Origin: Gammaproteobacteria bacterium
Lineage (GTDB): Bacteria; Pseudomonadota; Gammaproteobacteria; JAABTG01
Length of the DNA: 64,000 nucleotides
NCBI GenBank assembly: GCA_034522055.1
Contig: JAXHLS010000002.1
Coordinates: 1,116,001 to 1,180,000 of the forward strand
Direction of reading: 5' to 3'
A program made the translations under genes and the position numbers. Positions 15,442 to 45,440 of the stretch are shown here, piece by piece (position 1 is the first letter of the stretch; each line of letters starts with the position of its first letter). The notes under the pieces were generated by a model that was not told where the DNA came from, did no database searches, and saw only the letters and a list, made by a program, of their open reading frames with translations.

Positions 15442-15815
15442 GCTGCCCGGGAGCAGAAGAGCCTTTAAAGCGAAAAGCCTTTCAAACTACGAAGACGCAC
15501 CGAACGGCGCGAAAAAACTCTACTTACTCTGAGTTTTGTCTCCGGGAAGGTCCGTGGCGCTCGTTAGCTGGTGCTGCAGAGGAGCGAGTAACTGCTTCAA
15601 TAAAACTTTTGCGTATTTCGTAGTTAACTTCATGGCGATACGCGCCACCGAAATAATGAAAGAGGAGCGCGTATCGCCATGTTCGTTCCCTCACCCCATC
15701 CGCAACTCCGGGCATCCTGCCCTTCGCCCTGCGGGCCGCGCCAAGGCGCGTCCAAATCCGTTCCCGACGGATTTGTCCAAGAGGGAGAGGGGGAGTACGT
15801 GCTTCGCGACTTTCA
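15442..15815. other. Non-coding region between the dsrC-like gene and IS110 copy 1
   Basis: No convincing gene is present. The stretch 15670-15800 has the composition of a dispersed intergenic repeat seen in many proteobacteria (a CCCTCACCCC-like start and an AGGGAGAGGG-like end). The stretch 15475-15660 is less GC-rich and may be a remnant of transferred DNA. Confidence 0.4.
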
Positions 15816-15819
15816 CGTT

Positions 15820-15899
15820 AACTCTCATGCATCTGTGAGGCACCCGATAATGAAAGATAACTCTCATGCATCTGTGAGGCACCCCCGATAATGAAAGAT
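15820..15899 (+). repeat. Tandem duplication of the IS110 left end
   Basis: Two adjacent units of 39 and 41 bp, both starting AACTCTCATGCATCTGTGAG and ending GATAATGAAAGAT, differ only by two C residues. The second IS copy has a single unit, so the duplication belongs to this insertion. Confidence 0.8.
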
Positions 15900-16136
15900 G
15901 ATACGGGGTGCCGTCGCCGTGGGCAGAGGTCGCGATACTTTCTGATGGCGCTAGACCGCGCAAGTTAACTCGACCCGCCACCATTCACTCGTACCCCAGA
16001 TTGCTTGGCATGGCCTGAAGCGGTCATGGACAGCGCACGCTAAAAAGAGCCGTCGGTTTCCGACAGGCCGTTGAATGGCGGCGCCCTTGGCGACAGCACA
16101 TCATCAATGATAGTGCGTCAGCCTCAGGAGGTCAGC
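15861..16136 (+). ncRNA. Candidate IS110 bridge RNA region, copy 1
   Basis: IS110 elements are known to express a bridge RNA from the non-coding end, upstream of the transposase in the IS110 subgroup. This 276-bp segment is nearly identical between the two copies although it codes for nothing, and contains a stem-loop at 16052-16064. The word GTTAACTC (about 15963) matches the joined right-end/left-end junction of the element. RNA limits and loops are not determined. Confidence 0.45.
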
Positions 16137-17354
16137 ATGGACATCACCCCGATTCACCAGCGGGTCATCGGTCTGGATGTGCACCAGAACAAGATCACGG
16201 CCTGCGCCCTGACCGAGCAAGCCGATGGCAGTGTGGCAGTGGAACAACGCGAGTTTGGTGGCTTCAAGCGGGAGCGTCGGGCGCTGGCAGAGTGGGCACA
16301 CGGGTTCGCCCCGGACATCGTTGTCATGGAAAGCACGGGGATTTACTGGAAGAGCCCCTATGCGGCATTGGAGCGAGTAGGCATCGCGGCCTGGGTGGTC
16401 AATGCCCGTCATGTCAAGAACGTGCCCGGCCGCAAGACGGACATCTCCGATGCCCAGTGGCTGGCTACGCTGGCGCGGGCGGGCCTGGTGCGGGCCTCGT
16501 TCATTCCTCCGGCCGACATCCGTCACCTGCGCCTGATCTCCCAGGCAGCACCAGAAGTTGGGTGGAATGCTGGCCGCGGAGAAGAACCGGCTACACAAGG
16601 TGCTGGCCGATGCCGGGATCCGCCTGAATGTGCTGGTCTCCGATTTGCATGGGCAGGCTGGCACGGGCCATGGTCAAGGCCCTGCTGGCCGATGCGCCCA
16701 TCGATGCCATCCTCAATCGCGCCGGACGCCTGCGGGCCAGCGCGTGAGGATCTGTTCGAAGCCCTGCAACCGGAAGAACTCAGCGCAAAGCACCGCTTCG
16801 TGCTCAACGAGATCATGGCGCATATCGAGTACCTGGAAGCCACGATGGCCCGCTTCGCACAGGAACTGCTCGACGGCCTTGCCCCCTGGGAGGCGCAGAT
16901 GAGCCTGCTGGAAACCGTTCCCGGCATCGACCGCATGGGCGCCGCCATGCTGCTGGTGGAAATCGGCACCGACATGGACAGCTTCGGCAGCGCCGAACGC
17001 CTGGCTTCCTGGGTCGGGATCTGTCCCGGCAATAACGAGAGTGCCGGCAAACGCAAGCGCGGACGCACGCGCAAGGGCAATGCTTGGGTGCGACGCCTGT
17101 TGTGCGAGTTCGCCCAGGCCGCCTCACGAACCCGCTGCGCCCTCAAGGACAAGTTCTCCGCCCTGTCCATACGTAAGGGACACAAGCGCTCCATCATCGC
17201 CCTGGCCCACAAGATGCTGCGTATCGTCTATGCCATGCTCACCAACATGACACCCTATCAGGATCGCACCGTCGATTACGAAGCACTGATGGTCGGCCGC
17301 AACGCGCCTCGCTGGCTGAAGATGCTGGCCAAACACGGCTACATCGCTGCCTGA
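16137..17354 (+). CDS. IS110 family transposase (central part frame-scrambled)
   Basis: The start ATG (16137) follows CAGGAGGTCAGC. The N-terminal DEDD RuvC-like domain is intact: Asp14 in GLDVHQ, Glu65 in MESTG, and Asp102/Asp105 in GRKTDISDAQWL. The C-terminal Tnp domain with the PGIDRMGAAML motif and the catalytic serine region GNNESAGKRKRG is present. Compared with copy 2, this copy has three one-base insertions (about 16543, 16661 and 16741). They put about 65 residues into the wrong frame and then restore it, so the frame stays open to 17354. It is probably inactive unless the insertions are sequencing errors. Confidence 0.88.
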   Translation: MDITPIHQRVIGLDVHQNKITACALTEQADGSVAVEQREFGGFKRERRALAEWAHGFAPDIVVMESTGIYWKSPYAALERVGIAAWVVNARHVKNVPGRKTDISDAQWLATLARAGLVRASFIPPADIRHLRLISQAAPEVGWNAGRGEEPATQGAGRCRDPPECAGLRFAWAGWHGPWSRPCWPMRPSMPSSIAPDACGPAREDLFEALQPEELSAKHRFVLNEIMAHIEYLEATMARFAQELLDGLAPWEAQMSLLETVPGIDRMGAAMLLVEIGTDMDSFGSAERLASWVGICPGNNESAGKRKRGRTRKGNAWVRRLLCEFAQAASRTRCALKDKFSALSIRKGHKRSIIALAHKMLRIVYAMLTNMTPYQDRTVDYEALMVGRNAPRWLKMLAKHGYIAA

Positions 17355-17460
17355 GTCGTTCTGTAGACCTGACAACCCGCCAACGTTCCTTGCGCCCGGC
17401 ATGCGTCACGCCAGAATCGCGCTCGCCCAAAGGCCGGGTTCTTTCACGTTAACCCCGTTG

Positions 17461-43747: not shown

Positions 43748-43948
43748 CTTGGGTTCGGGCTTTGGCTTCAACCCGGCCTGCCGTTGGAAGATTGAGTGGC
43801 GGCCACCGAGACGTGAATCCCCGCAAGGCCGGCCGGGGCACTGAGCCCTTTAACGTGAAAGAACCCGGCCTTTTGGGTCGAGCGCGATTCTGGCGTGACG
43901 CATGCCGGGCGCAAGGAACGTTGGCGGGTTGTCAGTCTACAGAACGAC

Positions 43949-45165
43949 TCAGGCAGCGATGTAGCCGTGTTTGGCCAGCATCTTCAGCCAGCGAGGCGCG
44001 TTGCGGCCGACCATCAGTGCTTCGTAATCGACGGTGCGATCCTGATAGGGTGTCATGTTGGTGAGCATGGCATAGACGATACGCAGCATCTTGTGGGCCA
44101 GGGCGATGATGGAGCGCTTGTGTCCCTTACGTATGGACAGGGCGGAGAACTTGTCCTTGAGGGCGCAGCGGGTTCGTGAGGCGGCCTGGGCGAACTCGCA
44201 CAACAGGCGTCGCACCCAAGCATTGCCCTTGCGCGTGCGTCCGCGCTTGCGTTTGCCGGCACTCTCGTTATTGCCGGGACAGATCCCGACCCAGGAAGCC
44301 AGGCGTTCGGCGCTGCCGAAGCTGTCCATGTCGGTGCCGATTTCCACCAGCAGCATGGCGGCGCCCATGCGGTCGATGCCGGGAACGGTTTCCAGCAGGC
44401 TCATCTGCGCCTCCCAGGGGGCAAGGCCATCGAGCAGTTCCTGTGCGAGCGGGCCATCGTGGCTTCCAGGTACTCGATATGCGCCATGATCTCGTTGAGC
44501 ACGAAGCGGTGCTTTGCGCTGAGTTCTTCCGGTTGCAGGGCTTCGAACAGATCCTCACGGCTGGCCCGCAGGCGTCCGGCGCGATCGAGGATGGCATCGA
44601 TGGGCGCATCGGCCAGCAGGGCCTTGACCATGGCCCGTGCAGCCTGCCCATGCAGATCGGAGACCAGCACATTCAGGCGGATCCCGGCATCGGCCAGCAC
44701 CTTGTGTAGCCGGTTCTTCTCCGCGGCCAGCATTCCACCCAACTTCTGGTGCTGCCGGGAGATCAGGCGCAGGTGACGGATGTCGGCCGGAGGAATGAAC
44801 GAGGCCCGCACCAGGCCCGCCCGCGCCAGCGTAGCCAGCCACTGGGCATCGGAGATGTCCGTCTTGCGGCCGGGCACGTTCTTGACATGACGGGCATTGA
44901 CCACCCAGGCCGCGATGCCTACTCGCTCCAATGCCGCATAGGGGCTCTTCCAGTAAATCCCCGTGCTTTCCATGACAACGATGTCCGGGGCGAACCCGTG
45001 TGCCCACTCTGCCAGTGCCCGACGCTCCCGCTTGAAGCCACCAAACTCGCGTTGTTCCACTGCCACACTGCCATCGGCTTGCTCGGTGCAGGCGCGCAGG
45101 CCGTGATCTTGTTCTGGTGCACATCCAGACCGATGACCCGCTGGTGAATGCGGGGTGATGTCCAT
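43949..45165 (-). pseudogene. IS110 family transposase, frameshifted
   Basis: Relative to copy 1 this gene has insertions in its first 30 codons, which destroy the first catalytic Asp (GLDVHQ is not read). It also lacks one T at about 44447, which produces an early stop (GRRR) after roughly 255 residues. The rest continues from MSLLETVPGIDRMG to the end. The central region that is scrambled in copy 1 is intact here (LISRQHQKLGGMLAAEKNRL), so the two copies together give a full sequence. Confidence 0.88.
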
Positions 45166-45440
45166 GCTGACCTCCTGAGGCTGACGCACTATCATTGATG
45201 ATGTGCTGTCGCCGAGGGCGCCGCCATTCAACGGCCTGTCGGAAACCGACGGCTCTTTTTAACGTGCGCTGTCCATGACCGGTTCAGGCCATGCCAAGCA
45301 ATCTGGGGTACGAGTGAATGGTGGCGGGTCGAGTTAACTTGCGCGGTCTAGCGCCATCAAAAAGTATCGCGACCTCTGCCCACGGCGACGGCACCCCTAT
45401 TATCTTTCATTATCGGGGGTGCCTCACAGATGCATGAGAG
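45166..45440 (-). ncRNA. Candidate IS110 bridge RNA region, copy 2
   Basis: This is the same non-coding left end as in copy 1, with only a few base changes. The conservation of this untranslated segment supports an RNA role. Limits are not determined. Confidence 0.45.

What the first reader, a model, noticed from the sequence alone, without database searches (positions are those of the whole stretch)
15861..16136. Conserved non-coding end of the IS110 elements as a bridge RNA
Two copies share about 275 bp of untranslated DNA upstream of the transposase. The word GTTAACTC inside it equals the right-end/left-end junction of the element, as a donor-binding loop would require.
Basis: partly seen in the sequence, partly recalled or inferred. 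Interest (0 to 1): 0.55.

Follow-up and report, generated by a model that had tools for sequence, protein, structure and literature searches.

The report
Jumping gene's guide RNA plus miniatures
The stretch looks like the guide ("bridge") RNA of a jumping gene, and its two guide words match the landing site and the end of roughly ninety tiny gene-less repeats in the same genome, which suggests that an RNA-guided jumping system spread miniature passengers.

Summary
In detail: three ~1.59-kb IS110 copies (two in the window, one elsewhere) share ~275 bp of untranslated left end. Nineteen aligned left ends show a paired structure with compensatory changes. Two short words covary with DNA. The first (GTTAA here) tracks the left flank, the target: 53 of 54 variable cells, against 28 of 54 with the right end. 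The second (CACGTTAA) tracks the element's own right end, the donor: 51 of 54, against 26 of 54 with the flank.

The larger finding is next to it. Copies 1 and 3 stand at the right end of a ~200-bp repeat that has the IS110's own ends. The genome has 100 matches to that left end; 92 also have the right end (~125 or ~197 bp). They carry no transposase and no guide words, and typically follow GTTAA, the target word. Nine of 16 tested loci are uninterrupted in a congener. Two other genomes carry sister families with target word NCTAA and the same right end. Best reading: miniatures spread by bridge RNA in trans. Against: own transposases frameshifted, right-hand guides not found, no RNA data.

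The parts
15628..15821 (+). miniature element (194 bp, IS110-like left and right ends); the target word GTTAA precedes it at 15623-15627
   Evidence: dispersed repeat; right end CGACTTTCACGTTAA
15822..15860 (+). 39-bp partial extra copy of the IS left end, ending in GATAA, between the miniature and copy 1
   Evidence: read
15861..17452 (+). IS110 element, copy 1 (1592 bp)
   Evidence: alignment of three copies; PF01548 and PF02371
15891..15897 (+). ATGAAAG, invariant in 19 left ends; nearly the reverse complement of CTTTCAC in the right end (possible subterminal inverted repeat)
15928..15957 (+). helix 1, GGTC (15928-15931) with GACC (15954-15957)
   Evidence: covaries with the left flank
15977..16082 (+). 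domain closed by helix 2 (15977-15987 with 16072-16082), the helix with most compensatory changes
   Evidence: 8 of 9 pairs changed on both sides in some sequence; coordinates
16036..16043 (+). left donor guide word, CACGCTAA here; CACGTTAA in copies 2 and 3
   Evidence: covaries with the right end
16137..17354 (+). IS110 DEDD transposase of copy 1; frame open for 405 aa, but three single-base insertions relative to copies 2 and 3 scramble the middle; D14, E65, D102, D105 present
17437..17452 (+). right end of copy 1, GGTTCTTTCACGTTAA (donor side)
43850..45440 (-). IS110 element, copy 2 (1591 bp), transposase frameshifted
45334..45338 (-). target guide word GTTAA of copy 2
45259..45266 (-). 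donor guide word CACGTTAA of copy 2

Best explanation
The stretch encodes the bridge RNA of an IS110-group insertion sequence. Its first loop carries a left target guide (GTTAA), its second a left donor guide (CACGTTAA, the element's right end). The recombinase with this RNA would excise the element as a circle with the junction CACGTTAA|CTCTCATG and recombine it into a target ending in GTTAA: the left flank keeps the target's GTTAA and the right end brings its own. The exchange point is inferred to lie in the shared TTAA, core probably AA. The same machinery, acting in trans, most likely spread about ninety 125-200 bp elements that keep only the two ends. Shown here: paired structure, covariation of both left guides, shared ends, target word before the miniatures, uninterrupted sites in a congener. 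Inferred: transcription, circle, catalysis, mobilisation in trans.
For: Structure: 93.9% of 361 cells paired (shuffled 80.2, 0 of 500 as high; slid 28-41%), 50 cells changed on both sides (18.6; 0 of 500). Guides: donor 58 of 63 cells in 21 elements, target 100 of 105 in 21, each 0 of 100,000 permutations; one row per guide set 39 of 42 (2 of 100,000) and 68 of 70 (0); cross-comparison 53, 28, 51, 26 of 54. Intact relatives: 14 of 18 checked have a transposase frame of at least 392 aa from the first ATG. Miniatures: 100 matches to the left end, reversed-pattern control 1; 92 with right end, GTTAA before 39 of 92, 39 of 76 NNTAA flanks against 8.6% of window NNTAA words, p 7e-22; 9 of 16 loci uninterrupted in G001; sister families with other target words, same right end. 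No internal GTTAA in the 92.
Against: No RNA was measured. All three own transposase copies are frameshifted, copy 1 has a changed donor word and copy 3 a changed target word. Miniature-bearing G001 and G139 have no relative at E<=1e-10 (G001 is a draft in 290 contigs). Right target and right donor guides were not found, and the inferred core is not the CT of IS621. Further pair types were not above shuffles (19 against 20.1). L063 folded alone is unremarkable (z -1.94). In 8 of the 9 uninterrupted sites the congener's five-base word is not identical to the own one.
Confidence: 0.75

Rival explanations
1. The bridge RNA is real, but the miniatures were spread by another enzyme, for example an IS200/IS605-type or REP-associated (RAYT) transposase, which also inserts 3' of a short word, uses hairpins near the ends and makes no target duplication (features recalled).
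For: The miniatures have end hairpins and insert after a short word; G001 and G139 have miniatures without a relative of this transposase.
Against: Both miniature ends equal those of the IS110 (CTCTCATG; CTTTCACGTTAA), and their target and donor words are the two guide words of its RNA. Fragments of the transposase survive in the genus of G139. The only other IS110-like element detected with P0001 has no such ends. I did not search for HUH transposases.
Confidence: 0.15
2. The repeat is merely a landing site of the IS, as REP elements are for IS621 and QMITE2 is for IS1111, and is not a derivative of it.
For: Copies 1 and 3 stand at the right end of such a repeat; IS110 elements are known to use REPs as targets (PMC1525189, passages; PMC5896051, passages).
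Against: The repeat shares both ends with the IS, follows the IS's target word itself, and copies 1 and 3 stand at its outer edge, not inside it. Copy 2 is not next to such a repeat.
Confidence: 0.06
3. The non-coding stretch is only a conserved leader or DNA end; the apparent guide covariation comes from shared ancestry.
For: The relatives fall in few lineages, and single unrelated columns also score high by chance (for example column 240 with right-end position -4 in complement mode, z 4.5, 18 of 18).
Against: Each word follows its own DNA partner and not the other's (53 and 51 against 28 and 26 of 54); collapsing to one row per guide set keeps the signal; sliding the structure destroys it.
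Confidence: 0.04

Closest known systems
IS621 and its bridge RNA (PMC11208160, passages seen)
   Same: DEDD recombinase; RNA from the left end; first loop for the target, second for the donor; [quoted passage not shown]
   Different: No CT core; right guides not seen; target word here is five bases and equals the end of the donor; longer transposase; gene-less relatives in high copy.
seekRNA of ISEc21 and ISEc11 (PMC11187229, passages seen)
   Same: Upstream non-coding region in the IS110 type; RNA-guided target; for ISEc11, an ends-only mini-element moved when transposase and non-coding region were given in trans.
   Different: Those mini-elements were built in the laboratory; here ends-only elements occur naturally in about 90 copies.
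Prokaryotic MITEs (review PMC10969869, passages seen)
   Same: Short, gene-less, high copy, ends shared with a parent IS.
   Different: IS110 does not occur in the text of the review; no target duplication and no terminal inverted repeat pair of the classical kind; target word matches an RNA guide.
QMITE2 as a target of IS1111 in Coxiella (PMC5896051, passages seen)
   Same: An IS1111/IS110-type element associated with a miniature repeat.
   Different: There the repeat is a target with its own ends; here the repeat has the ends of the IS.

Membership tests
IS110 family | DEDD_Tnp_IS110 and Transposase_20 domains | tested here: met
   PF01548 2.3e-19, PF02371 8.6e-23; D14, E65, D102, D105 present (their match to the catalytic set is recalled)
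IS110 family | IS110-type layout: long non-coding region upstream of the transposase (IS1111 type: downstream) | tested here: met
   276 bp upstream, about 98 bp downstream of the gene
IS110 family | insertion without target duplication beyond a short core | tested here: inconclusive
   not tested on an empty site of the IS itself; miniatures show no duplication at 9 of 16 loci with an uninterrupted site
IS110 bridge RNA | conserved secondary structure | tested here: met
IS110 bridge RNA | first loop matches target (left target guide) | tested here: met
   53 of 54 variable cells, 28 of 54 against the right end; 100 of 105
IS110 bridge RNA | second loop matches donor end (left donor guide) | tested here: met
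   51 of 54, 26 of 54 against the flank; 58 of 63
IS110 bridge RNA | right target and right donor guides | tested here: inconclusive
   column scan showed no diagonal; miniature right flanks have no motif
IS110 bridge RNA | CT core as in IS621 | tested here: not met
   bases after the right end vary (A 33, C 24, G 16, T 27% at the first), so CT is not restored there; core inferred AA. CT is the core of IS621, not a requirement of the family
IS110 bridge RNA | RNA expressed and bound by the recombinase | not testable with these tools
   no RNA data
MITE of an IS110 element | short, gene-less, high copy | tested here: met
   92 elements, 41 under 150 bp, 49 of at least 190 bp
MITE of an IS110 element | ends shared with the parent | tested here: met
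   left CTCTCATG, right CTTTCACGTTAA
MITE of an IS110 element | evidence of insertion | tested here: met
   9 of 16 loci uninterrupted in congener
MITE of an IS110 element | moved by the parent's recombinase in trans | not testable with these tools
   needs an experiment

The most novel reading that the evidence does not exclude
Natural bridge-RNA-guided miniature elements: DNA with neither gene nor guide RNA, carrying only the two ends read by an IS110 donor guide, has multiplied to about ninety copies in one genome; families in three lineages land after different words (GTTAA, CCTAA, mostly GCTAA) while keeping one donor end, so that a change of the RNA's target loop redirects a whole family of dispersed repeats.
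Probability: 0.65. Interest if true: 0.75.

Novelty: new variant of a known kind. Interest (0 to 1): 0.62.

Why it matters
Bridge RNAs are being developed as programmable recombination tools. Natural ends-only passengers of about 125 bp (two of 58 bp in another genome) would be natural minimal donors; some ninety insertion sites in one genome would be a natural read-out of how strictly the target loop is obeyed; and a class of high-copy repeats would gain an explanation. The case also shows how a target word shared with the donor end lets elements land on their own relatives.

Tried and rejected
Rfam: no match in the window at gathering scores. Viral contigs: 14 pattern hits, none a relative. 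Stop-codon idea: 13 of 42 miniatures with TAA at the junction end a frame of at least 80 open codons, against 13 of 55 control [TC]TAA sites; no clear enrichment. Promoter scan of 15600-16200: one sigma-70-like site, on the opposite strand, and two terminator-like sites, one per strand. The other IS110-like element of the genome (L012-L014) has no CTTTCAC-type right end, so it is not a likely mover. In G001 the L083 site holds other DNA, not a recognisable miniature. Right guides: not found. Eight genomes with relatives hold 1, 1, 0, 5, 2, 2, 5 and 9 CTTTCACRYTAA sites (reversed controls 0, 1, 0, 2, 5, 1, 1, 0); most of those looked at show no miniature, with the exceptions noted below. A class-wide protein search found a match in 4 of 369 genomes at E<=1e-50, own included.

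Papers: searches (20 of 24 listed; 20 of 20; 0 found; 20 of 224 listed; 21 of 21; 25 of 236 listed), and passages of PMC9769881, PMC3718332, PMC10969869, PMC5896051, PMC11187229, PMC11208160 and PMC1525189. None that I saw reports an IS110-derived MITE. No paper was read whole; subscription papers and preprints are not in the library.

Full report
Observation. Copy 1 (15861-17452, +) and copy 2 (43850-45440, -) of an IS110 element share an untranslated left end; in copy 1 it is 276 bp, up to the ATG at 16137. A third copy lies elsewhere in the same 5.1-Mb genome (read from L004). The three are 1,592, 1,591 and 1,586 bp long and 99.4-99.8% identical over aligned bases. The protein of copy 1 matches PF01548 and PF02371. 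All three genes are frameshifted: copy 1 by three single-base insertions relative to the other two, which scramble the middle though the frame stays open; copies 2 and 3 by other shifts.

Relatives. A scan of genome contigs with the C-terminal 200 residues gave 33 loci, mostly beta- and gammaproteobacteria and Acidithiobacillus, with one distant hit in Prevotella. Of 18 relatives checked, 14 have a transposase frame of at least 392 aa from the first ATG. I aligned 19 left ends, three own and 16 relatives (A1). L052, L054 and L059 (like L050, L053 and L055), L058 (left end replaced) and loci without a readable left end were left out.

Structure. RNAalifold gave 20 pairs, consensus energy -12.9 kcal/mol, of which covariation -2.6. 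Without one isolated pair, 19 pairs in three helices: 93.9% of 361 cells form standard pairs (shuffles 80.2%, 0 of 500 as high), 50 cells are changed on both sides (18.6, 0 of 500), 11 pairs have such a change (7.5, 2 of 500), and sliding by 1-3 columns drops pairing to 28-41%. One measure did not stand out: further pair types, 19 against 20.1. Shuffles do not remove relatedness. Folded alone, copy 2 has z -3.34 (0 of 200 shuffles as stable), L063 z -1.94 (10 of 200).

Guides. Of 23 elements, 21 had both a right end and a donor word: agreement at 58 of 63 variable cells (permutation mean 40.9), words identical over 8 bases in 14 of 21. Twenty-one had both a flank and a target word: 100 of 105 cells (80.8), identical over 5 bases in 16 of 21. 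None of 100,000 permutations did as well in either test. With one row per guide set (14 elements each): 39 of 42 (2 of 100,000) and 68 of 70 (0). On A1, 18 elements: first word with flank 53 of 54, with right end 28; second word with right end 51, with flank 26. For copies 1 and 2 a flank had to be chosen; taking GATAA for copy 1 would cost one cell. A scan of every column against every flank position put columns 129, 128 and 130 (first word) highest, at flank positions -4, -5 and -3, above every hit in either mode. For the right end, columns 206 and 205 (second word, 17 of 18 each) came third and fourth in identity mode, behind two low-agreement columns, and a lone column in complement mode (240, 18 of 18, z 4.5) scored above them; they are the high-agreement neighbours that form a run. 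Exceptions: copy 1 has CACGCTAA for its CACGTTAA end, copy 3 has GTTGA, L057, L060, L068 and L069 differ at one or more bases of the donor word, and L052 and L054 have a right end one base off their donor word. No right guides emerged. The second base after the target word (T, G or C) equals the second base of the left end in 19 of 19; this rests on about three lineages and is unexplained.

The repeat next door. Window 15628-15821 belongs to a dispersed repeat; a BLAST search scored 40 of 231 first-look candidates and listed 41 matches. Copy 3 starts directly at the right end of such a repeat; at copy 1 a 39-bp partial left end (15822-15860) lies between. The repeat's left end CTCTCATGGCGATACGCGCC with up to 3 mismatches occurs 100 times in the genome, reversed-pattern control 1. 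All 100 places were read. In 92 a right end lies within 420 bp at up to 4 mismatches in 14 bases (79 of them at 0 or 1). Of the 8 others, 4 are the opposite arm of the hairpin of copies also counted, and one of the 92 has a miniature-interior left flank and may be such an arm too. Lengths: 41 under 150 bp, 2 between, 49 of at least 190 bp. The left end starts like the IS (CTCTCATG) and has a hairpin with an ATGAAAG-type loop; the right end CTTTCACGTTAA is exact 71 times in the genome, IS copies included. No GTTAA lies inside the 92. Left flanks: GTTAA 39, ATTAA 8, CTTAA 6, CCTAA 6, GATAA 5, GCTAA 5, the rest others; per position G 63, T 71, T 89, A 92, A 97%; right flanks show no motif. Of 76 NNTAA flanks 39 are GTTAA, against 8.6% of 291 NNTAA words in the window, p 7e-22; the 92 left 20-mers are all different.

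Empty sites. I joined 150 bp from each side of 16 miniatures and searched congener G001. Nine of 16 match across the junction, six on one side or in separated pieces, one not at all. The break lies at the target word: own AAGATAA|TGCC against AAGATAA|CCGCC, own GTGTTAA|CTATT against GTGTTAAA|CTACC. In 8 of the 9 the congener's five-base word is not identical, by a substitution, an indel or an extra base.

Other genomes. In 369 genomes of the class, CTTTCACGTTAA occurs 71 times in the own genome, 35 in congener G001 (control 1), 10 in G139 (control 0) and at most twice in any other. G001 has a ~118-bp family with left end CGGACATGG after CCTAA in 8 of 11 distinct places read from 25 loci (others at contig ends dropped out). 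G139 has one with left end CGATCATGG, as in IS110 relatives L051, L056 and L063: 20 places, 14 with a right end (7 exact CACGTTAA), flanks GCTAA 6, ACTAA 2, CCTAA 2, TCTAA 1; 4 of the 20 look like reversed hairpin arms. Base -4 is T in 65 and C in 16 of the own copies, 0 and 11 in G001 (Fisher 2e-7), 2 and 14 in G139 (4e-7). G001 and G139 have no relative of the transposase at E<=1e-10 (G001 is a draft). In G139's family 3 of 38 genomes hold a partial match at E<=1e-40, two in its genus. So miniatures may outlast the IS.

Mechanism. Known for IS110 elements: a left-end RNA whose loops pair with target and donor (PMC11208160, passages). For ISEc11, ends-only elements moved with transposase and non-coding region in trans (PMC11187229, passages). 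Here the target word and donor end of the miniatures are the two guide words of the IS110 RNA in the same genome. Because the right end itself ends in GTTAA, an inserted element offers a fresh target: two IS copies stand at such ends and 3 of 92 miniatures follow a right-end-like flank. Miniature copies have median pairwise identity 94% (38 and 47 copies of the two classes), the IS copies 99.4% or more, so I infer that the miniatures spread earlier, by an intact relative.

Prior knowledge. The text of a 2024 review of prokaryotic MITEs does not contain IS110. The listings and the passages read gave no IS110-derived MITE; there IS110 or IS1111 elements appear as users of repeats or in lists. 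The library is open-access only, so the claim is that I did not find one.

Verdict. The bridge RNA is a new member of a known kind; together with the miniature families it is a new variant. Weakest links: no RNA data, no right guides, no intact IS copy in this genome, and no test for other transposases.

Noticed in passing
window 15822-15860: A 39-bp partial left end ending in GATAA directly before copy 1, as if the IS had once inserted into its own left end (which contains GATAA, a word used by 5 of 92 miniatures) and the rest was lost by recombination (inference).
   Followed up: partly
L229 and L230 (G377), L221 (G376): Two elements of 58 bp with CTAA before the left end CTTTCATG, a hairpin, and the right end CTTTCACGTTAA; and a further candidate miniature, in genomes with IS110 relatives.
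   Followed up: partly
L042, left of the miniature: CTAACTCTCGACTTTCACGTTAA: what looks like a remnant of left end joined to right end, followed by a miniature.
   Followed up: no
A1 columns 133-134 and the first two left-end bases: CT, CG or CC after the target word equals the first two bases of the left end in 19 of 19; unexplained, few lineages.
   Followed up: partly
L012, L013, L014: A second IS110-like element, three nearly identical copies, about 27% identical to P0001 over the matched part, with different ends.
   Followed up: partly
interior of the miniatures (window about 15682-15800): The miniature families of three genomes share a second hairpin of the form CCCTCACCCC...GGGAGAGGG although their left ends differ; its role is unknown.
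   Followed up: no
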